NCBI RefSeq assembly: GCF_011386835.1
Contig: NC_088797.1
Location: forward strand, 91,708,264-91,772,263
Reading direction: 5' to 3'
From: Chrysemys picta bellii
Taxonomy: Eukaryota; Chordata; Testudines; Emydidae
Length of the DNA: 64,000 nucleotides
The notes under the pieces were generated by a model. The model was not told the DNA's origin, did no database searches, and worked only from the letters and a program-made list of their open reading frames with translations. Positions within the stretch are counted from its first letter, which is position 1; each line of letters starts with the position of its first letter. The position numbers were made by a program, and so were the translations under genes. This document shows positions 22,074 to 57,906 of the stretch, one piece after another.

Positions 22074-22199
22074 GGGTATGTCTACACTATGAGAGTAGTT
22101 CGATTTTACTTAAATCGAATTAGTGGAACCGATATTAGAAAGTTGAACGTGTGTATCCACACTAAGAACAGTAATTCGACTTTGTAAATCCACACTCAT
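22074..22199. mobile_element. Harbinger-like MITE, truncated
   Basis: The segment starts GGGTATGTCTACACTATGAG, closely like the left end of the full Harbinger at 47572, followed by short AATCGAATT/AATTCGAC motifs. The right terminus is missing; sequence resembling another repeat begins near 22205. Probably a truncated non-autonomous relative mobilised by Harbinger transposase. Confidence 0.65.
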
Positions 22200-33357: not shown

Positions 33358-33745
33358 TGAGGCATGGTCTACACTACGGGTTTAGGTCGACTTTAGCAGC
33401 GTTAAACCGAATTAAGCCTGGACACGTCCACACAACGAAGCCCTTTCTTTCGACTTAAAGGGTCCTTTAAACCGGTTTCTTTACACCACCTCTGACGAGG
33501 GGATTAGCGATAAAACCGGTCTTTGCGGGTCGGAATTGGGGTAGTGTGGACGGAATTCGATGTTATTGGCCTCCGGGAGCTATCCCACAGTGCTTCATTG
33601 TGACCGCTCTGGACAGCACTCTCAACTCAGATGCACTGACCAGGTAGACAGGAAAAGACCCACGAAGGTTTGAATTTCATTTCCTGTTTGCCCAGCGTGG
33701 AGAGCACAGGTGACCCCGCAGAGCTCATCAGCACAGGTAACCGTG

Positions 33746-35384
33746 ATGGAGTCCTCCCAGGATCGCAAAAGAGCTCCAGCATGGACCGAACGGGAGGTAC
33801 GAGATCTGCTCGCCATATGGGGAGATGAAGCAGTGATAGCTGAACTCCGTAGCAGTAAAAGAAATGGAAAAGTATTAGAAAAGATCTCCAAGGCCATGAA
33901 GGACCGAGGCCATAACAGGGACACACAGCAGTGCCGCGTGAAAATTAAGGAGCTACGGCAAGCTTACCAAAAAGCCAGAGAAGCAAACGGAAGGTCCGGG
34001 GCAGAGCCGCAAACTTGCCGCTACTACGCGGAGCTGCATGCGATCCTAGGGGGTGCAGCCACCACTACCCCAACCGTGTGCTATGACTCTCTCACTGGAG
34101 AAACACACAGGGAAGACGGTTCGGGGAACGAGGAAGATGACGATGGAGGTACTGTAGGTAGCTCACAGCAGCAAGGAAGCGGAGAAACCGGTTTCCCCAA
34201 CAGCCAGGATATGTTTGTCACCCTGGACCTGGAACCAGTAACCCCCGAACTCACCCAAGACCCTCAGGGCACACAGGAGACCTCTGGTGAGTGTAACTTT
34301 GTAACTATTTGTAAACATTACAAAAAAAAAGCAAGCGTGTTTAATGATTAATTTGCCCTGGCAATCGCGGCCAGTACATCTACTGGAAAAGTCTGTTAAC
34401 GTGTATGGGGATGGAGCGGAAATCCTCCAGGGACATCTCCAGAAAGCTCTCCTGGTTGAAATGGGGTGATTTTATTAAGGGGACATTCAGAGGCGCCCGT
34501 TCCTGCTCTTCTGACCAGAAATGTTCCCCGCTGTTAACCACGCGGTGGGGGGAGGGGTGAAGTGATTATCCCAAAGAATCGTGTGTGTGTGTGTGGGGGG
34601 TGGTTTACTTGTGTTTGTGCCGCATGTTAACCGGGAAACCGCAGCCCCCTCCTTTTACATTGAAACCCCATTTTAAATGGACAACCCAATTCATCCTTGA
34701 TATGGGAAATGCGCTGCTGTTTGCAACCTTTCCCGCATGTTAAGAAGGTTAAAAAAGCCAAAACACTGTGGCCTACGATGGCTGCCTGCAAGCCGAAATA
34801 TGCGACCTTGTAATGAAAGAGTGTACCCATTGTTCTCTAAAATGTGTCTTTTTTAACCACCTCTCCCTTCTCCTCCGCCAGCTGCAAATGTTTCTCCTTC
34901 GCAGAGGCTCGTGAACATTAGAAAGAGAAAACGTAGGACGAGGGACGAGATGTTCACGGAGCTGCAGATGTCCGCCCAGGCTGATAGAGCACAGCAGAAT
35001 GCGTGGAGGCAGTCAATGTCGGAGATGAGAAAAGCCCAATATGAACGAGAGGAGAGGTGGCGGGCTGAATCGCGGGAAGAACAGAGCAAGTGGCGGGCTG
35101 AAGACGATAGGTGGCGTCAGCTTGCAGACAGACGGCAAGAGGCAATGTTCCGTCTGCTGGAGCATCAAACTGATATGCTCGAGCGTATGGTTGAGTTGCA
35201 GGAAAGGCAGCAGGAGCAGAGACAGCCGCTACAGCCCCTGTGTAACCAACAGTCCTCCTCCCCAAGTTCCATAGCCTCCTCACCAAGACGCCCAAGAACA
35301 CGGTGGGGGGGCCTCCGTCCACCCAGTCACTCCACCCCAGATGATCGCCCAAGCATCAGAAGGCTGGCCTTCAATAAGAGTTAA
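33746..35384 (+). CDS. Harbinger Myb/SANT-like DNA-binding protein, two exons
   Basis: Predicted coding exons are 33746-34286 and 34882-35384, giving 347 residues. The donor CTG/GTGAGTG and acceptor TCCTCCGCCAG are good, and the phase-1 junction keeps the frame. Residues about 10-90 form a Myb/SANT-like trihelix domain starting PAWTEREVRDLLAIWGDE and including KVLEKISKAMKDRG. An acidic, Gln/Ser-rich linker follows. Exon 2 encodes a basic KRKRRTRDEMF segment and a long charged helix rich in Arg, Glu and Gln (likely coiled coil). In Harbinger systems this protein brings the transposase to the nucleus and element ends. AATAAA lies at 35477. The first ATG in frame was taken as start. Confidence 0.8.
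34287..34881 (+). other. intron of the Harbinger Myb-like gene
   Basis: A 595-bp intron with GTGAGTG at the donor, a pyrimidine-rich tract and CAG at the acceptor. The inverted copy preserves both sites (51672/51671 and 50817/50816 on the minus strand), which supports the splice model over two separate ORFs. A (GT)n tract lies at 34581-34595. Confidence 0.75.
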
Positions 35385-35634
35385 AGTTTTAAAATGCAGT
35401 GTGTCCTTTTCCATCCCTCCTCCCCCACCCATCCCAGGCTACCTTGGCAATTATCCCCCTACCTCTGTAAGGAACTAATAAAGAATGCATGAATGTGAAA
35501 AAACAATGACATTATTGCCTCTGCAAGCGGGAGGGGAGGGTGGGGTGGGGTGGTTGGTTTACAGGGAAGTAGAGTGAACCGGGTCGGGGGGGGGGGGGTT
35601 TGGAGGGCTCATCAAGGAGAAACAAACAGAAGTT

Positions 35635-36936
35635 TCACACAGTAGCCTGGCCAGTCACAAAACTCGTTTTCAAAGCTTCTCTGATGCGCACCGCGCCCTG
35701 CTGTGCTCCTCTAACCGCCCTGGTGTCTGGCTGCACGTAATCAGCGGCCAGGCGAGTTGCCTCAACCTCCCACCCCGCCATAAAGGTCTTCCCCTTACTC
35801 TCACAGATATTGTGGAGCGCACAGCAAGCAGCAATAACAATGGGGATATTCTTTTCGCTGAGGTCTGAGCGAGTCAGTAAGCTGCGCCAGCGCGCTTTTA
35901 AACATCCAAATGCACATTCCACCACCATTCGGCACTTGCTCAGCCTGTAGTTGAACAGGTCCTGACTCCTGTCCAGGCTGCCTGTGTACGGCTTCATGAG
36001 CCATGGCATTAAGGGGTAGGCTGGGTCCCCAAGGATCACGATAGGCATTTCAACATCCCCAATGGTCACTTTCTGGTCCGGGAAGAAAGTCCCTTCCTCC
36101 AGCTTTCGAAACAGAGCAGAGTTCCTGAAGACGCGAGCATCATGTACCTTTCCCGGCCATCCCACGTTGATGTTGGTGAAACGTCCCTTGTGATCCACCA
36201 GGGCTTGCAGCAGCATTGAAAAGTACCCCTTGCGGTTTACGTAGAAGGTGGCTTGGTGCTCCGGTGACAAGATAAGGATATGGGTTCCGTCTATGGCCCC
36301 ACCACAGTTTGGGAATCCCATTTCAGCAAAACCATCCACTATTGACTGCACGTTGCCCAGAGTCACTACCCTTGCTATCACCAGGTCTTTCATTGCCCTG
36401 GCAAATTGGATCACAGCAGCCCCCACCGTAGATTTGCCCACTCCAAATTGATTCCCGACTGACCGGTAGCTGTCTGGCGTTGCAAGCTTCCACAGGGCTA
36501 TCGCCACTCGCTTCTCAACTGTGAGGGCTGCTCTCATCTTGGTATCCTGGCATTTCAGGGCAGGGGAAAGCAAGTCACAAAGTTCCATGAAAGTGCCCTT
36601 ACGCATGCGAAAGTTTCGCAGCCACTGGGAATCGTCCCATACCTGCAGCACGATGCGGTCCCACCAGTCTGTGCTTGTTTCCCGGGCCCAGAATCGGCGT
36701 TCCACGGCATCAACCTGCCCCAGTGACACCATGATTTCCACATTGCTGGGGCCTGTGCCTTGTGAGAGGTCTATGTCCATGTCAATTTCCTCATCACTCT
36801 CGTCGCCGCGCTGCAATCGCCTCCTCGCCTGGTCCGGGTTTCCCCTTGGCATGTCCTGGCTCTGCATATACTCCAGGACAATGCGCGTGGTGTTCATAGT
36901 GCTCATAATTGCCGCGGTGATCTGAGCGGGCTCCAT
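35635..36936 (-). CDS. Harbinger (HARBI1-like) DDE transposase, intact 433 aa
   Basis: An uninterrupted frame of 433 codons starting MEPAQITAAI. Residues about 105-185 contain a helix-turn-helix-like region (YRSVGNQFGVGKSTV). The DDE_4 nuclease fold follows: D216 in GGAIDGTHI, D266 in VHDARVF, D304 in LGDPAYP and E340 in VVECAFGCLK. D304 and E340 are 35 residues apart, the spacing expected for Harbinger. The enzyme would cut and join element ends together with the Myb-like partner. It is convergent with that gene, with 250 bp between stops. The poly(A) signal is AATAAT where copy 2 has AATAAA. Full-length for the family; no broken motifs seen. Confidence 0.93.
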   Translation of the reverse strand: MEPAQITAAIMSTMNTTRIVLEYMQSQDMPRGNPDQARRRLQRGDESDEEIDMDIDLSQGTGPSNVEIMVSLGQVDAVERRFWARETSTDWWDRIVLQVWDDSQWLRNFRMRKGTFMELCDLLSPALKCQDTKMRAALTVEKRVAIALWKLATPDSYRSVGNQFGVGKSTVGAAVIQFARAMKDLVIARVVTLGNVQSIVDGFAEMGFPNCGGAIDGTHILILSPEHQATFYVNRKGYFSMLLQALVDHKGRFTNINVGWPGKVHDARVFRNSALFRKLEEGTFFPDQKVTIGDVEMPIVILGDPAYPLMPWLMKPYTGSLDRSQDLFNYRLSKCRMVVECAFGCLKARWRSLLTRSDLSEKNIPIVIAACCALHNICESKGKTFMAGWEVEATRLAADYVQPDTRAVRGAQQGAVRIREALKTSFVTGQATV

Positions 36937-36956
36937 GATCCCAGTGCTAGCTATGG

Positions 36957-38685
36957 CGCCTGGTCAGAAAAAAGGCGCGAAAGTAGTATCTGATGGACCA
37001 GGAGAAGGAGGGAGGGCGGGAGTGACGACATGGCATACAGGTACAGGAACAGGGAGAAACACAAACAACTGTCACACAGAATGGTCCCCCCAAAGATTAA
37101 ACTGGAAACCCTGGGCTTAGCAGGCCATTGATTTCACGGAGGAAGGGGAAGCAAATGAATACAGAACAAATCTATTTTTTACATCTTAAGGTGGCAGCCG
37201 ACGGTGCAGCATGAGTGATAGCCTCTCCAGTATGATGATGACGGATACCAGTCATAAAATACCATCATCTGCAAAAAGGCAAGGGGCTGCTGCTGTGTAG
37301 CAATGCAGCCCCACGTCTGCCAGCCCCACGTCCGCCAGCACCCAGCATCGCCCTCGGCCTCTTCTGGGTGCTTAGCAGACAATACTGGGCAATTGGCAGA
37401 AAATAGTATATTACGACTGGTAACCATCATCATCAAAACAGTAGCATGTCTGCCCAGGTGGCCATGATTGACAGCCATACCAGTATGACGACGATGGGTA
37501 CCAATCATAATATACCATCGCCTGCAAGGGGCTGGTGCAATGCAGCCCTACGGCTGCCAGCCCCACGACTATCACTCATGCTACACCGTCTACCGCCAAA
37601 AGGCAGTTAGCAGCTGCTGCTGTGTAGCAATGCAGTCCCACGTCTGCCGGCACCCAGAGGACATATGGTGACGGTGAGCTCAGCTGAGCTGAGCGGGCTC
37701 CATGCTTGCCGTGGTATGTTGTCTGCACAGGTAACCCAGGTAAAAAGGCGCGAATCTATTGTCTGCCGTTGCTGTGACGAGGGGGGAGGGGCCTGACGAC
37801 ATGTACCCAGAACTGCCCGCGACACTGTTTTGCATCATCCGGGCATTGGGATCTCAACCCAGAATTCAAAGAAAAGGCGCGAACCGCTTCTCGGCTCTCT
37901 GAGCTGTGGCGCAAACGTAGTATCTGACGGACTAGGGGAAGGAGGGAGGGCGGGCCGAGTGACGACATGGCGTACAGGTACAGGGAATTAAAATCAAGAA
38001 CGGTGGCTGTGCATCAGGGAGAGACACAAACAACTGTCACACAGAATGGTCCCCCCCCAAAGATTAAACTGAAAACCCTGGGTTTAGCAGGCCGTTGATT
38101 TGACGGAGGGAGGGGGAAGCAAATGAATACAGAGCAAATCTATTTTTTACATCTTAAGACGACGGTGCAGCGTGACTGATAGCCCTCGGCATCTTTCTGG
38201 GTGCTTGGCAGCAAATACGGGCCGGTGTATGACGATGGTCTTCAGGCCTATTGCACAATTGGCTGCTCAGGAAAGACTCTGCTAACGTGCGGTGACCCGA
38301 CTTGTAATAGGACGGCTAACAGTCGTAATACACCATTTACTGCCAAAAGGCAAGCCCCACGGCTGCCAGCACCCAGATCGCCGATGAAGGCTACCAGTCT
38401 ACTGCACCGTCTACCGCCAAAAGGCAGTTAGCAGCTGCTGCTGTGTAGCAATGCAGTCCCACGTCTGCCGGCACCCAGAGGACATATGGTGACGGTGAGC
38501 TCAGCTGAGCGGGCTCCATGTTGTCTGCACAGGTAACCCAGGTAACCCAGGTAAAGAGGCGCGAATCTATTGTCTGCCGTTGCTGTGACGGGGGAGGGAG
38601 GGGCCTGACGACATGTACCCAGAACCGCCCGCGACACTGTTTTGCATCATCCGGGCATTGGGATCTCAACCCAGAATTCAAAGGG
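36957..38685. repeat. tandem duplication inside Harbinger copy 1, upstream of the transposase
   Basis: Two diverged copies, about 36957-37867 and 37906-38685, share the same order of blocks: a GACGACATGGC/GTACAGG block, an ACAGAATGGTCCCCCC block (37077 and 38043), a CAAATCTATTTTTTACATC block, and an AGCTGCTGCTGTGTAGCAAT block (37611 and 38435). The latter leads into ATGTACCCAGAAC and CATCATCCGGGCATTGGGAT. Copy 2 of the transposon has this region essentially once. The sequence is non-coding; ORFs inside are artefacts. Confidence 0.75.
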
Positions 38686-38906
38686 GCGGCGGAGACTGCG
38701 GGAACTGTGGGATAGCTGTGGGATAGCTACCCATAGTGCAATGCTCCGGAAGTCGACGCTAGCCTTGTACTGTGGACACGGTCCGCCGACTAGAGCACCT
38801 AGAGCATTTTATTGTGTGGACACACACAATCGGCTGTATACAACCGATTTCAATAAAACCGGCTTCTATAAATTCGAACTAATTTCATAGTGTAGACGTA
38901 CCCTAA

Positions 38907-44412: not shown

Positions 44413-44760
44413 TGGATTTGGCGGCGCGGTGCTCGGAGGGGGGGGGCTTCGGGCGGCGCTCGGAGGGAGGGCGGGGGCTTCGGGCGGTGCTCGGGGGGTG
44501 CAGGGCTTCAGGCGGCGTGGTGCTCGGGGGGGGCGGGGGCTTCGGGCGGCGCGGTGCTTGGGGGGGTGGGGCTTTGGGCGGCGTGGTGCTCGGGGGGGCG
44601 GGGCCGTGGCAGGTGGGGGCTGGCGTGGTGCGGCGCTTAGAGGGGGGGACGGGGGCTTTGGGCGGCGTGGCGCTTGGAGGGGGTGGGGCTTCAGGTAGCG
44701 TGGTGTTGGGGAGACAGGGATTTTGGTGACGCTCGCAGGGGGGGGGGTATGGCGGGGCGG
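44412..44760. repeat. GC-rich minisatellite inside the hAT
   Basis: About ten irregular copies of a unit of roughly 30-40 bp with the core GGGCTTCGGGCGGCGCGGTG then a run of G. Overlapping ORFs of 116-153 codons on both strands are composition artefacts. Confidence 0.8.
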
Positions 44761-47489: not shown

Positions 47490-47571
47490 GCTATGTTTAC
47501 ACTACCCATGCTGATGCCTCACTTGGGTAAGCTAGCCTGTGCACGGCTTTTACTGTGTAGACATGACCTAA
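47490..47571. mobile_element. MITE fragment beside Harbinger copy 2
   Basis: The segment runs from TATGTTTACACTACCCATGC to TTACTGTGTAGACATGACC, roughly inverted ends with the TGTCTACAC-like core. Harbinger copy 2 starts at the next base after TAA, so it landed at or next to the end of this older element. Confidence 0.5.
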
Positions 47572-48767
47572 GGGTATGTCTACACTACGAAATTAGTTCG
47601 AATTTATAGAAGCCGGTTTTATAGAAATCTGTTGTATACAGCCGATTGTGTGTGTCCCCACATAAAATGCTCTAAGTGCTCTAGTCGGCAGACCACGTCC
47701 ACAGTACTGAGGCTAGCGTCGACTTCCGGAGCATTGCACTATGGGTAGCTATCCCACAGCTATCCCACAGTTCCCGCAGTCTCCGCCGCCCATTGGAATT
47801 CTGGGTTGAGATCCCAATGCCCGGATGATGCAAAACAGTGTCGCGGGAGGTTCTGGGTACATGTCGTCAGGCCCCTCCCCCTCCGTCACAGCAACGGCAG
47901 ACAATAGATTCGCGCCTTTTTACCTGGGTTACCTGTGCAGACAACATACCACGGCAAGCATGGAGCCCGCTCAGCTCAGCTGAGCTCACCGTCACCATAT
48001 GTCCTCTGGGTGCCGGCAGACGTGGGACTGCATTGCTACACAGCAGCAGCTGCTAACTGCCTTTTGGCGGTAGACGGTGTAGCATGACTAATAGCCGTGG
48101 GGCTGGCAGCCGTAGGGCTGCATTGCACCAGCCCCTTGCCTTTTGGTAGAAGATGGTATATTACGACTGGTATCCGTCGTCGTCATACTGCAGTGGCTGT
48201 CAATCATGGGCACCTGGGCAGACATGCTACTGTCTCGATGATGATGGCTATCAGTCGTAGTATACTATTTTCTGCCAATTGCCCAGTATTGTCTGCTAAG
48301 CACCCAGAAGAGGCCGAGGGCGATCTGGGTGCTGGCAGACGTGGGGCTGGCAGACGTGGGGCTGCATTGTTACACAGCAGCAGCCCCTTGCCTTTTGGTA
48401 GAAGATGGTATATTACGACTGGTATCCATCGTCATCGTACTGCAGAGGCTATCAGTCATGCTGCACCGTCGGCTGCCAGCTTAAGATGTAAAAAATAGAT
48501 TTGTTCTGTATTCATTTGCTTCCCCTCCCTCCGTGAAATCAACGGCCTGCTAAACCCAGGCTTTTCAGTTTAATCTTTGGGGGGACTATTCTGTGTGACA
48601 GTTGTTTGTGTTTCTCCCTGATGCACAGCCACCTTTCTTGATTTTAATTCCCTGTATCTGTACGCCATGTCGTCACTCGCCCTCCCGCCCTCCCTCCATC
48701 TCCTGGTCCGTCAGATACTAGTTTCGTGCCTTTTTTCAGACCAGGCGCCATAGCTAGCACTGGGATC

Positions 48768-50068
48768 ATGGAGCCCGCTCAAATCACTGCGGCAATTATG
48801 AGCACTATGAACACCACGCGCATTGTCCTGGAGTATATGCAGAGCCAGGACATGCCAAGGCGAAACCCGGACCAGCCGAGGAGGCAATTGCAGCGCGGCG
48901 AAGAGAGTGATGAGGAAATTGACATGGACATAGACCTCTCACAAGGCACAGGCCCCAGCAATGTGGAAATCATTGTGTCACTGGGGCAGGTTCATGGCGT
49001 GGAACGCCGATTCTGGGCCCGGGAAACAAGCACAGACTGGTGGGACCGCATCGTGCTGCAGGTGTGGGACGATTCCCAGTGGCTGCGAAACTTTCGCATG
49101 CGTAAGGGCACTTTCATGGAACTTTGTGACTTGCTTTCCCCTCCCTGAAACGCCAGAATACCAAGATGAGTGCAGCCCTCACAGTTGAGAAATGAGTGGC
49201 GATAGCCCTGTGGAAGCTTGCAACGCCAGACAGCTACCGGTCAGTCGGGAATCAATTTGGAGTGGGCAAATCTACGGTGGGGGCTGCTGTGATCCAAGTT
49301 GCCAGGGCAATGAAAGACCTGGTGATATCAAGGGTAGTGACTCTGGGCAACGTGCAGGCAATAGTGGATGGTTTTGCTGAAATGGGATTCCCAAACTGTG
49401 GTGGGGCCATAGACGGAACCCATATCCCTATCTTGGCACCGGAGCACCAAGCCACCTTCTACGTAAACCGCAAGGGGTACTTTTCAATGCTGCTGCAAGC
49501 CCTGGTGGATCACAAGGGACGTTTCACCAACATCAACGTGGGATGGCCGGGAAAGGTACATGATGCTCGTGTCTTCAGGCACTCTGGTCTGTTTCGAAAG
49601 CTGGAGGAAGGGACTTTCTTCCCGGACCAGAAAGTAACCATTGGGGATGTTGAAATGCCTATCGTGATCCTTGGGGACCCAGCCTAACCCTTAATGCCAT
49701 GGCTCATGAAGCCGTACACAGGCAGCCTGGACAGAAGTCAGGACCTGTTCAACTATAGGCTGAGCAAGTGCTGAATGGTGGTGGAATGTGCATTTGGACG
49801 TTTAAAAGCGCACTGGCGCAGCTTACTGACTCGCTCAGACCTCAGCGAAAAGAATATCCCCATTGTTATTGCTGCTTGCTGTGCGCTCCACAATATCTGT
49901 GAGAGTAAGGGGGAGACATTTATGGGGGGGTGGGAGGTTGAGGCAACTTTCCTGGCCGCTGATTACGTGCAGCCAGACACCAGGGCAGTTAGAGGAGCAC
50001 AGCAGGGCGCGGTGTGCATCAGAGAAGCTTTGAAAATGAGTTTTGTGACTGGCCAGGCTACTGTGTGA
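48768..50068 (+). pseudogene. Harbinger transposase pseudogene (copy 2)
   Basis: Starts with the same MEPAQITAAI. A one-base deletion near 49143 shifts the frame to a TGA at 49146. Three further in-frame stops follow relative to copy 1: TGA at 49193 (Arg codon CGA in copy 1), TAA at 49685 (Tyr in GDPAYP) and TGA at 49771 (Arg). The DDE-region residues are otherwise recognisable (GGAIDGTHI, VHDARVF, VVECAFGRLK). An AATAAA lies near 50190. It cannot make active enzyme. Confidence 0.92.
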
Positions 50069-50320
50069 AACTTCTGTTTGTTTCTCCTTGATGAACCCTC
50101 CACACCCCCCTGACCCGGTTCACTCTACTTCCCTGTAAACCAACCATCTCATCCTCCCCTCACCACTTCGAGCACCGCTTGCAGAGGCAATAAAGTCATT
50201 GTTTTTTCACATTCATGCATTCTTTATTAATTCCTCACACAAGTAGGGGGATAATTGCCAAGGTAGCCTGGGATGGGTGGGGGAGGAGGGATGGAAAAGG
50301 ACACACTGCATTTTAAAACT

Positions 50321-52221
50321 TTAACTCTTATTGAAGGCCAGCCTTCTGATGCTTGGGCGATCATCTGGGGTGGAGTGACTGGGTGGCCGGAGGCCCCCCC
50401 ACCGTGTTCTTGGGCGTCTCGGTGAGGAGGCTATGGAACTTGGGGAGGAGGGCTGTTGGTTAAACAGGGGCTGTAGCAGCGGTCTCTGCTCCTGCTGCCT
50501 TTCCTGCAGCTCAACCATACGCTCGAGCATATCAGTTTGATGCTCCAGCAGACGGAGCATTGACTCTTGCCGTCTGTCTGCAAGCTGACGCCACCTATCA
50601 TCTTCAGCCCGCCACTTGCTCTTTTCATCCCGCCATTCAGCCCGCCACCTCTCCTCTCGTTCATATTGTGCTTTTCTCATGTCTGACATTGACTGCCTCC
50701 ACACATTCTGCTGTGCTCTATCAGCGTGGGAGGACATCTGCAGCTCCGTGAACATATCGTCCCGCGTTTTCTCTTTCTAATGTTCACTAGCCTCTGCGAA
50801 GGAGAAACATTTGCAGCTGGTGGAGGAGAAGGGAGAGGTGGTTAAAAAAGACATATTTTAGAGAACAATGGGTACACTCTTTCATTACAAGGTCGCATTT
50901 TTCCTCTGCCTGGCGGTTTGGTATGAGAGATCACTCACGCAGTGCCCCAGGCAACATATTTCGGCTTGCAGGCAGCCATGGTAAGCCACAGTCTTTTGGC
51001 TTTTTTAACCTTCTTAACATGCGGGAAAGGTTTCAAACAGCAGCGCATTTCCCATATCAAGGATGAATTGGGTTGGCCATTTAAAATGGGTTTTCAATGT
51101 AAAAGGAGGGGCTGCGGTTTCTGGGTTAACATGCGGCACAAACCCAAGTAAACCACCCCCCCCCCACACACACACCTGATTTTTTGGGATGATCACTTCA
51201 CCCCTCCCCCCACCGCATGGTTAACAGCGGGGAACATTTCTGTTCAGAAGAGCAGGAACGGGCACCTCTGAATGTCCCCTTAATAAAATCACCCCATTTC
51301 AACCAGGTGACCGTGAATGATATCACTCTCCTGAGGATAACAAAGAGAGATAAGGAATGGATATTGTCTGCATGCCATGCTTTGTTATGCAATGATTCCA
51401 GACTACGTGCTACTGGCCTGGTGTGGTAAAGTGTCCTACCATGGCGGACGGGATAAGGCAGCCCTCCCCAGAAACCTTTTGCAAAGGCTTTGGGAGTACA
51501 TGAAGGAGAGCTTTCTGGAAATGTCCCTGGAGGATTTCCGCTCCATCCCCATACACGTTAACAGACTTTTCCAGTAGATGTACTGGCCGCGATTGCCAGG
51601 GCAAATTAATCATTAATCATTAAACACGCTTGCTTTTAAACCATGTGTGATATTTACAAAGGTACACTCACCAGAGGTCCTTTGTGTGCCCTCAGGGTCT
51701 GTGAGCACGCCTTGGGTGAGTTCGGGGGTTACTGGTTCCAGGTCCAGGGTGACAAACATATCCTGGCTGTTGGGGAAACCGGTTTCTCCGCTTCCTTGCT
51801 GCTGTGAGCTACCTACAGTACCTCCATCCTCATCTTCCTCGTTCCCCGAACCGTCTTCCCTGTGTGTTTCTCCATTGACGGAGTCATAGCACACGGTTGG
51901 GGTAGTGGTGGCTGCACCCCCTAGAATGGCATGCAGCTCCACGTAGAAGCAGCAAGTTTGCGGCTCTGCCCCGGACCTTCCATTTGGTTCTCTGGCTTTG
52001 TGGTAGGCTTGCCGTAGCTCCTTAATTTTCACGCAGCACTGCTTTGTGTCCCTGTTATGGCCCCAGTCCTTCATGGCCTTGGAGACCTTTTCTAATACTT
52101 TGCCATTTCTTTTACTGCTACGGAGTTCAGCTAGCACTGATTCATCTCCCCATATGGCGAGCAGATCCCGTACCTCCCGTTCTGTCCATGCTGGAGCTCT
52201 TTTGCGATCCTGGGACTCCAT
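50321..52221 (-). pseudogene. Harbinger Myb-like gene, frameshifted (copy 2)
   Basis: Exon 1 (52221-51672) is open and starts MESQDRKRAPAWTEREVRD, one Ser shorter than copy 1. Splice sites are kept, with the intron at 51671-50817. In exon 2, after the KRK segment, a 7-base deletion near 50757 (where copy 1 has the RDE codons) moves the helix-coding part out of frame. The helix frame 50755-50321 is itself still open. The Myb domain could be made without the C-terminal helix. Confidence 0.82.
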
Positions 52222-52609
52222 CACGGTTACCTGTGCTGATGAGCTCTGCGTGGTCACCTGTGCTCTCCACGCTGGGCAAACAGGAAATGAAATTCAAACG
52301 TTCGCGGGTCTTTTCCTGTCTACCTGGTCAGTGCATCTGAGTTGAGAGTGCTGTCCAGAGCGGTCACAATGAAGCACTGTGGGATAGCTCCCGGAGGCCA
52401 ATAACGTCAAATTCCGTCCACACTACTCCAATTCCGACCCGCAAAGGCCGATTTTATCGCTAATCCCCTTGTCGAAGGTGGTGTAAAGAAACCAGTTTAA
52501 AGGGCCCTTTAAGTCGAAAGAAAGGGCTTCGTTGTGTGGACGTGTCCAGGCTTAATTCGATTTAACGCTGCTAAAGTCGACCTAAACCCGTAGTGTAGAC
52601 CAGGCCTAA

Positions 52610-56240: not shown

Positions 56241-56876
56241 CATAGAAAATTTCACACTGCATGGTTAAAGTTTGGCAAAGTTTTAGGCAACTGAAAACAG
56301 TGTCTTATAATGGAAACTGTCAGGCAACCTTAAGTATATTACTGAATTATCTATAATGATGTCTTAAATGGTTATAGAGCCTTCATCTTGATGAATTTCA
56401 AAGTGCTTTATTATGATCTATTTATACAGGCAGAGTGGTCCTTACCATCTTTTTGATACTAAGAGACAGCTATAGAACCTGTCAATTTAATGTCAGAGCA
56501 ACCAGTAAGTAATTTATAGTGACAGTAAGTAGAATGAGAGGGAACCATATGCAACTTAACTATGTGTCACAGGCTTAAAGCCATCTTTGTACAGTATTCC
56601 CAGTTCTTTTCTCAGCTGGAATGCCATGCTCAATAAAGATACACAACAGGTTAACACAGGAAATTAAGAATATTGTATTCAGTTGAAATTCAGTGGGAAT
56701 TTAGGTTGGAGAAAAGTTAGTGCAGGTACAGTCCCATATGTCACTGAAACATATTCATTCCAGTTTTCTTTGCTTGCTATGGAAATAATGACTTCTGATT
56801 TTTAATTGAAACAAGTTAACAGCATAACATAGTCTTGAATCTGCAAACACTTAAGCAAATGATTAGTTCCATTGAA
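56241..56876. other. intronic sequence, nothing recognised
   Basis: No supported gene or repeat up to the CR1 insertion site. Confidence 0.4.
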
Positions 56877-56880
56877 ATCA

Positions 56881-57906
56881 ATTCTTGCCGCCAAGTTAAA
56901 GAAGTATGGGCTGGATGAATGGACTGTAAGGTGGATAGAAAGCTGGCTAGATCGTCGGGCTCAACGGGTAGTGATCAATGGCTCCATGTCTAGTTGGCAG
57001 CCGGTTTCAAGCGGAGTGCCCCAAGGGTCGGTCCTGGGGCCGGTTTTGTTTAATATCTTTATTAATGATCTGGAGGATGGTGTGGACTGCACTCTCAGCA
57101 AGTTTGCAGATGACACTAAACTAGGAGGCGTGGTAGATACACTAGAGGGTAGGGATCGGATACAGAGGGACCTAGACAAATTAGAAGATTGGGCCGAAAA
57201 AAACCTGATGAGGTTCAACAAGGACAAGTGCAGAGTCCTGCACTTAGGACGGAAGAATCCCATGCACTGCTACAGACTAGGGACCGAATGGCTAGGTAGC
57301 AGTTCTGCAGAAAAGGACCTAGGGGTCACAGTGGACGAGAAGCTGGATATGAGTCAACAGTGTGCTCTTGTTGCCAAGAAGGCTAACGGCATTTTGGGCT
57401 GTATAAGTAGGGGCATTGCCAGCAGATCGAGGGACGTGATCGTTCCCCTTTATTTGACATTGGTGAGGCCTCATCTGGAATACTGTGTCCAGTTTTGGGC
57501 CCCACACTACAAGAAGGATGTGGAAAAATTGGAAAGAGCCCAGCGGAGGGCAACAAAAATGATTAGGGGTCTGGAGCACATGACTTATGAGGAGAGGCTG
57601 AGGGAACTGGGATTGTTTAGTCTCCAGAAGAGAAGAATGAGGGGGGATTTGATAGCAGCCTTCAACTACCTGAAGGGGGGTTCCAAAGAGGATGGAGCTC
57701 GGCTGTTCTCAGTGGTGGCAGACGACAGAACAAGGAGCAATGGTCTCAAGTTGCAGTGGGGGAGGTCCAGGTTGGATATCAGGAAAAACTATTTCACTAG
57801 GAGGGTGGTGAAACACTGGAATGCGTTACCTAGGGAGGTGGTGGAGTCTCCTTCCTTGGAGGTTTTTAAGGCCCGGCTTGACAAAGCCCTGGCTGGGATG
57901 ATTTAG
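56881..57906 (+). pseudogene. CR1 ORF2 C-terminal half, open frame
   Basis: The frame encodes the RT palm onward: [13 protein letters not shown], the catalytic KFADDTKLG (metal-binding Asp pair), then the thumb and C-terminal region ([30 protein letters not shown] near the end). Fingers and the N-terminal endonuclease are missing because of 5' truncation, so it cannot move itself. The nominal start lies in flanking DNA and is not a real initiation codon. No stops or frameshifts occur in about 1 kb. Confidence 0.9.

What the first reader, a model, noticed from the sequence alone, without database searches (positions are those of the whole stretch)
33361..38903. Harbinger transposon with both proteins intact
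The element has an uninterrupted 433-codon DDE transposase with D216, D304 and E340 in place, and an in-frame spliced Myb-like partner with good splice sites. Harbinger activity needs both proteins, and vertebrate copies are usually dead. Directly seen: open frames, motifs, splice phase. Inferred: possible recent activity.
Basis: partly seen in the sequence, partly recalled or inferred. Interest (0 to 1): 0.8.

Follow-up and report, generated by a model that had tools for sequence, protein, structure and literature searches.

The report
Turtle Harbinger-like transposon, freshly multiplied family
This is one slightly worn copy of a two-gene cut-and-paste transposon whose family has very recently multiplied in nearly identical, apparently intact copies across a turtle genome, and whose odd insertion-site duplications may reveal a detail of how it jumps.

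Summary
In detail: 33361-38903 is a complete 5,543-bp element with an open 433-codon DDE transposase (D216, D304, E340) and an in-phase spliced 347-aa Myb/SANT protein. 'Recent activity' holds for the family, not for this copy. Nineteen complete copies read in full differ by 0.07% on average, 10 of 171 pairs have no substitution, and 18 of 19 have both frames intact. The window copy is about 1.5% from them. Targets are C|TNA|G with a 3-bp duplication, as in the NuwaII group of the PIF/Harbinger-like superfamily, not TWA only. Oddity: in 13 of 61 copies the left and right duplications differ, 10 only at the middle base; mutation predicts about 0.1. At two such sites near-identical empty paralogues show unbroken flanks and one foreign middle base, so misassembly does not explain them. 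Leading idea (unproven): the element carries its old 3-nt overhang into the new site. Two further sites do not fit it simply, and yeast data on rice mPing speak against it being general.

The parts
33361..38903 (.). complete element, 5,543 bp
   Evidence: ends and length; near-identical ends in 61 other copies
33358..33360 (.). left flanking triplet TGA (preceded by C)
38904..38906 (.). right flanking triplet TAA (followed by G); does not match the left one
33361..33400 (+). left end of the imperfect terminal inverted repeat
38864..38903 (-). right end of the imperfect terminal inverted repeat
33676..33695 (+). splice-acceptor-like sequence upstream of the Myb start (first exon base 33696); protein sequence of gene models P0124 and P0152 is joined to host exons at the matching place
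33746..34286 (+). Myb/SANT protein, coding exon 1
34287..34881 (+). intron of the Myb gene
34882..35384 (+). Myb/SANT protein, coding exon 2 with stop codon
35477..35482 (+). putative poly(A) signal AATAAA of the Myb gene
35511..35516 (-). AATAAT at the place where the 19 young copies have AATAAA behind the transposase gene
35635..36936 (-). DDE transposase, 433 codons and stop
36937..38903 (.). non-coding region upstream of the transposase with an internal repeat (37544-37871 and 38353-38683, 87% identical)
47572..52606 (-). second copy of the family, TTA/TTA duplication; transposase with one frameshift and three stops, Myb exon 2 with a 7-bp deletion

Best explanation
Its DDE transposase probably cuts the element out and pastes it elsewhere, helped by the Myb/SANT protein that probably binds the ends (inferred from the superfamily, not tested). 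The family went through a very recent burst from one or a few nearly identical sources and may still be moving. The window copy is an older, slightly decayed member outside that burst.
For: Anatomy and domains. Own genome: 97 scored matches of 30,719 candidates, 95 without internal stops, 52 with one identical score by my count of the rows. 19 complete copies: mean pairwise divergence 0.00068, 10 of 171 pairs without substitution, 18 of 19 with both frames intact, 32 singleton and 2 shared variable columns, a star-like pattern. Matching 3-bp duplications in 48 of 61 copies; empty paralogues in the window for L020, L021 and, more diverged, L014. Window copy: 81-88 differences per about 5,536 bp to each young copy, 75 fixed differences of which 18 are CpG losses.
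Against: The 19 copies were taken from the top-ranked matches and for equal transposase score, so they are the youngest end of the family and their identical transposase is by choice. Assembly polishing can make repeats look more alike than they are. One assembly, no reads: no transcripts, no polymorphic insertions, no assay. NuwaII versus PIF/Harbinger rests on the target site, not on a tree. 30,719 is a loose first look, not a copy number.
Confidence: 0.85

Rival explanations
1. Mismatched duplications, leading idea: the excised element keeps a 3-nt 5' overhang of its old site; at a new C|TNA|G site this overhang can fill the gap, tolerating a mismatch at N, so one side (or both) shows the old site's base.
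For: 13 of 61 copies mismatched, 10 only at the middle base, against 0.11 expected from mutation. L055 (TTA/TCA): 20 empty paralogues at 98-99% across the junction, 19 CTTAG and 1 CTAAG, so the right side is foreign. L023 (TAA/TGA): 16 paralogues, all CTGAG, so the left side is foreign; 8 of them differ from the joined flanks at that base only. Staggered cutting of the duplications with a 5' overhang is the published model for mPing excision (PMC4561436, passages).
Against: L141 (TAA/TTA): 12 of 13 paralogues (90-95%) have CTCAG, so both sides differ; L081 (TTA/TCA): the best of 4 paralogues (96%) has CTGAG, both sides differ, the others are mixed. These need an already mismatched donor or a changed target. 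In yeast an mPing with TCA duplications went into TTA or TAA in 45 of 46 cases (PMC4561436 section 8), so carry-over is rare there if it occurs. Three mismatches (L035, L065, L067) also involve the first base.
Confidence: 0.4
2. Mismatched duplications are assembly joins or exchanges between near-identical copies, so that left and right flanks come from different loci.
For: Copies are nearly identical over 5.5 kb, longer than short reads; unrelated flanks would differ at N in about 66% of pairs.
Against: Flanks are contiguous at L055 and L023 (paralogues 98-99% and up to 99% across the junction), and very probably at L141 (90-95%) and L081 (96% best); at L055 the joined flanks also give one 252-aa frame with a DUF4371 match across the junction. 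Not tested for the other nine: L131 gave only 77-81% paralogues, five gave only their own flanks (L011, L065, L067, L071, L107), three were never searched on their own (L035, L047, L051).
Confidence: 0.15
3. Mismatched duplications arise by error-prone filling or repair of the 3-nt gaps at the new site.
For: The change is mostly confined to one base inside the duplication; both sides can differ from the paralogues (L141, L081).
Against: It needs an error rate of the order of 10% at one position and almost none beside it.
Confidence: 0.2
4. The near-identity is an artefact of assembly or polishing, and the family is older than it looks.
For: Repeat copies can be homogenised by short-read polishing (general knowledge, no call).
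Against: Other family members in the same assembly keep their differences (window copy 1.5%; second copy K2P 0.048 from it); L014 and L016 keep 8 singletons each; 3-bp duplications and empty paralogues are not made by polishing.
Confidence: 0.07
5. The window locus is a domesticated host gene pair rather than a transposon copy.
For: Both frames are open; co-domestication of PIF/Harbinger protein pairs is reported in insects (PMC9710019, title and abstract start in a listing).
Against: It keeps both ends and is one of many copies. Simulated neutral decay leaves both frames open in 29-59% of runs at 0.5% divergence, 9-35% at 1.0% and 3-23% at 1.5% (with and without frameshift risk), so open frames need no selection.
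Confidence: 0.03

Closest known systems
NuwaII group of the PHIS (PIF/Harbinger, ISL2EU, Spy) superfamily (PMC4482050; sections 5, 8, 9 read)
   Same: Two genes (DDE transposase and Myb/SANT protein), target C|TNA|G, ends beginning GG, similar length (about 4.7 kb there); one turtle is among its 12 species.
   Different: Near-identical recent copies and mismatched duplications are not in the sections read; the duplication length left open there (3 or 5 bp) is 3 bp here. No tree was made.
PIF/Harbinger group in the narrow sense, rice Ping/mPing (PMC2836001: abstract, sections 7 and 11; PMC4561436: passages, section 8)
   Same: Two proteins, 3-bp duplication, extended target preference; staggered cutting of the duplications is the model there.
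   Different: mPing uses TWA almost only (45 of 46 insertions of a TCA-flanked mPing went into TTA/TAA); here 9 of 48 matching duplications are TCA or TGA.
Harbinger-Snek of sea kraits (PMC8437027, passages)
   Same: Recent burst of a two-gene Harbinger in a reptile, with intact copies.
   Different: Horizontally acquired 15-25 million years ago and described there as having slowed massively; the paper says Harbingers were known before in some testudines. Sequence relation to the turtle family was not tested.
HARBI1, domesticated Harbinger nuclease
   Same: Related protein family; some turtle copies bear the name 'Nuclease HARBI1' in databases.
   Different: Here a multicopy element with ends and a partner gene; relation to true HARBI1 not tested (no reference sequence used).

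Membership tests
PHIS superfamily, two-gene type | DDE transposase of the DDE_Tnp_4 family | tested here: met
   E=5e-35, whole profile
PHIS superfamily, two-gene type | second protein with Myb/SANT domain | tested here: met
   Myb_DNA-bind_4 E=1.3e-18; profile of 25 relatives matches the GT-1 DNA-binding domain in the PDB, E=1.1e-5
PHIS superfamily, two-gene type | terminal inverted repeats and 3-bp target duplication | tested here: met
   imperfect repeats; 48 of 61 copies with matching 3 bp; empty paralogues
PIF/Harbinger group (narrow) | duplication TWA | tested here: not met
   35 of 48 TWA, 9 TCA or TGA, 4 others
PIF/Harbinger group (narrow) | HTH motif in the transposase | tested here: inconclusive
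   HTH_Tnp_4 E=0.078, 13 bits against a cut-off of 27
NuwaII group | target C|TNA|G | tested here: met
   44 of 48 matching duplications are TNA with all four N; C before in 53 of 61, G after in 54 of 61
NuwaII group | ends begin with GG | tested here: met
   GG at both ends
NuwaII group | place in the NuwaI/II clade of the DDE tree | not tested
   no reference transposases with names were at hand
Active transposon | near-identical copies with both proteins intact | tested here: met
   18 of 19 copies read in full
Active transposon | polymorphic insertions, transcripts, excision | not testable with these tools
   one assembly, no reads

The most novel reading that the evidence does not exclude
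A naturally active vertebrate Harbinger-like transposon that carries the 3-nt overhang of its old site into the new one, so that its target duplications often record donor as well as target: a trace in the genome that could show which copy jumped where and how gap closing works in this superfamily.
Probability: 0.36. Interest if true: 0.78.

Novelty: new member of a known kind. Interest (0 to 1): 0.62.

Why it matters
A 2010 abstract calls rice Ping and Pong the only naturally active PIF/Harbinger elements then known (PMC2836001). A turtle genome with many near-identical two-gene copies would offer a natural vertebrate source for the two-protein reaction and a very recent DNA-transposon burst in an amniote. 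The mismatched duplications make a mechanistic question, whether the excised end keeps its overhang into the new site, testable from sequence and in a simple assay. It also warns that many turtle 'genes' in databases are transposon genes: cluster P0121 stands for 321 member sequences and P0189 for 782.

Tried and rejected
Structure: AlphaFold2 on the 30-row alignment gave mean pLDDT 39.8; not used, no fold search made. No PDB relative of the transposase by sequence. IMG/VR scan: 36 pattern matches, none a relative. Rfam and tRNA scans of the window: nothing. dN/dS between the two window copies (0.75 transposase, 0.50 Myb) is too weak to use. The transposase frame is less diverged between the two window copies than non-coding parts (38/1301 against 122/2156, p=1.6e-4), but its synonymous divergence is low too, so I claim no selection. 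The first whole-element alignment misplaced the internal repeat; its K2P of 0.070 is replaced by 0.048 for 33361-37871. A terminus-like stretch at 22074 could not be paired securely. Literature: searches listed no paper whose title or abstract start describes near-identical intact Harbinger/NuwaII copies in turtles; one search on mismatched duplications. Only openly licensed papers are in that library, and I read parts of nine.

Full report
WHAT IS THERE. The element runs from 33361 to 38903. The Myb gene is on the plus strand (exons 33746-34286 and 34882-35384, 347 aa), the transposase on the minus strand (35635-36936, 433 aa); they converge. Both ends share the core GTCTACACTA. A second copy, 47572-52606, in the other orientation, has TTA on both sides and a transposase with one frameshift and three stops. 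The two copies differ by K2P 0.048 over 33361-37871, 0.037 without CpG sites.

RELATIVES. As far as the printed names go, the 120 best listed proteins for each gene are from turtles (1,327 and 1,395 significant in all, the rest not shown). Thirteen contig lengths of the window's genome equal those printed for Chrysemys picta bellii proteins in these lists, for example 360060997 and 209633115; C2 is close but not equal. I take the species to be that one.

THE FAMILY IS YOUNG. A six-frame search of the own genome (2.37 Gb) scored 97 of 30,719 candidates; 95 of 97 have no stop inside, and 52, by my count of the rows, share one score. I fetched 20 of these 52 in full; one (L028) was cut short by my coordinates. 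The other 19 are 5,555-5,557 bp and encode one identical transposase, which I selected for; 18 have an intact Myb frame, one (L023) an early stop. Mean pairwise divergence is 0.00068, maximum 0.00306, and 10 of 171 pairs have no substitution. There are 32 singleton columns and 2 shared ones, about 0.03% per copy. At an assumed 1e-9 substitutions per site per year (not from a call) that would be about 0.3 million years on average. The left 300 bp alone gave 1,943 candidate places, 40 scored. These are the top-ranked copies, so they show the youngest end of the family.

THE WINDOW COPY IS NOT PART OF THE BURST. It differs from each young copy at 81-88 of about 5,536 sites; 75 differences are fixed, 18 of them CpG losses on the window side. 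Ten of 433 transposase residues differ from the young copies. At positions 221 and 345 it departs from the residues of 26 and 23 of 29 aligned relatives; five relatives share its residue at 345, none at 221, so this is a sign of decay, not proof of death. The putative transposase poly(A) signal is canonical in 19 of 19 young copies and AATAAT here. Simulated neutral decay leaves both frames open in 29-59% of runs at 0.5% and 3-23% at 1.5%.

TARGET SITES. I tried 70 copies (20 full, 30 end pairs end pairs) and read both ends in 61 (19+28+14). Of the 61, 49 belong to the 52-copy group and 12 do not. Duplications match in 48: TAA 18, TTA 17, TCA 5, TGA 4, others 4. C precedes in 53 and G follows in 54 of 61. 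Copies that lack this C or G while the element's own end bases are unchanged (L014, L113, L133, L139) point to a 3-bp, not a 5-bp, duplication, a question left open for NuwaII in PMC4482050 (section 8). Empty paralogues lie in the window for L020 (62873-62958), L021 (57899-57991) and, at 81%, L014 (60566-60677).

MISMATCHED DUPLICATIONS. Thirteen of 61 do not match (11 of the 49 in the group, 2 of the 12 others); ten differ only at the middle base, three (L035, L065, L067) also at the first. Mutation at the divergence of the 19 full copies predicts 0.11 in 61; the divergence of the end-only copies was not measured. All thirteen were in answered paralogue searches, but all 40 rows went to L055, so L035, L047 and L051 were in effect not searched; the lists are capped at 40 rows. 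L055 (TTA/TCA): 20 fetched, 98-99%, CTTAG 19, CTAAG 1; left as target, right foreign. L023 (TAA/TGA): 16 fetched, 92-99%, all CTGAG; right as target, left foreign; 8 of them differ from the joined flanks at that base only. L081 (TTA/TCA): 4 fetched, 77-96%, CTGAG 2, CTTAA 1, CCGAG 1; the best differs from both sides. L141 (TAA/TTA): 13 fetched, 90-95%, CTCAG 12, CTCTG 1; both sides differ. L131: 7 fetched, 77-81%, uninformative. L011, L065, L067, L071 and L107 gave only their own flanks. For L055 the joined flanks also read as one 252-aa frame with a DUF4371 match (residues 41-195) over the junction at 61. So misassembly is excluded for L055 and L023, unlikely for L141 and L081, open for the rest. 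Transport of the donor's 3-nt overhang fits L055, L023 and the bias to the middle base; L141 and L081 need a mismatched donor or a changed target; and mPing in yeast (45 of 46 insertions of a TCA-flanked element in TTA or TAA; PMC4561436 section 8) speaks against it as a general rule. The window copy's own TGA/TAA is of the same kind.

HOW IT PROBABLY WORKS. Shown: anatomy, duplications, target, near-identical copies. Inferred from the superfamily: both proteins are needed (PMC2836001 abstract); the Myb protein binds the ends and shares nuclear import with the transposase (PMC9179366, passages); excision cuts the duplications in a staggered way (PMC4561436, passages).

VERDICT. An ordinary kind of element in an unusual state. 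The copy in the finding is a bystander; the interest lies in the family behind it and in its mismatched duplications.

Noticed in passing
database proteins P0096, P0124, P0152, P0171, P0110 (turtles): Predicted gene models join host exons to genes of this family: KRAB with a whole DDE domain (Emydura), KRAB with Myb (Chrysemys), FAM151B/Menorin with Myb (Malaclemys), a PUB-domain protein with Myb and MIX23 with part of the transposase (both Caretta). P0124 and P0152 are joined at the place of the acceptor at 33696. Models, not proven transcripts.
   Followed up: partly
clusters listed: The largest listed Myb clusters (321 and 782 member sequences) are bigger than the largest transposase clusters (23 for the Chrysemys form, 167 in Caretta); masking of transposases in annotation or Myb-only copies could explain it.
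   Followed up: no
flanks of L055 (L095, L096) and the 40 places listed: L055 sits in another multicopy element with a DUF4371 frame, itself 98-99% alike over 128-129 bp at the 40 listed places.
   Followed up: partly
L020 and L041 (with L042): Two copies are inserted at the same position of the same kind of repeat (..GTTAGTCTC|TAA|GGTGCCACAAGTAC..).
   Followed up: no
window 47545-47571: The second copy ends beside another terminus-like sequence (GGTCATGTCTACACAG, read on the minus strand), as if it had landed in that element's flanking TTA.
   Followed up: no
window 56863-57906: Open 347-codon frame with a reverse transcriptase match (RVT_1, E=6.3e-17); CR1-like by recall.
   Followed up: no
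window 22074-22162: 90-bp stretch 72% like the element's right end; its other end could not be assigned.
   Followed up: partly
window 44420-44604: G-rich tandem array with 31-66-bp periods.
   Followed up: no
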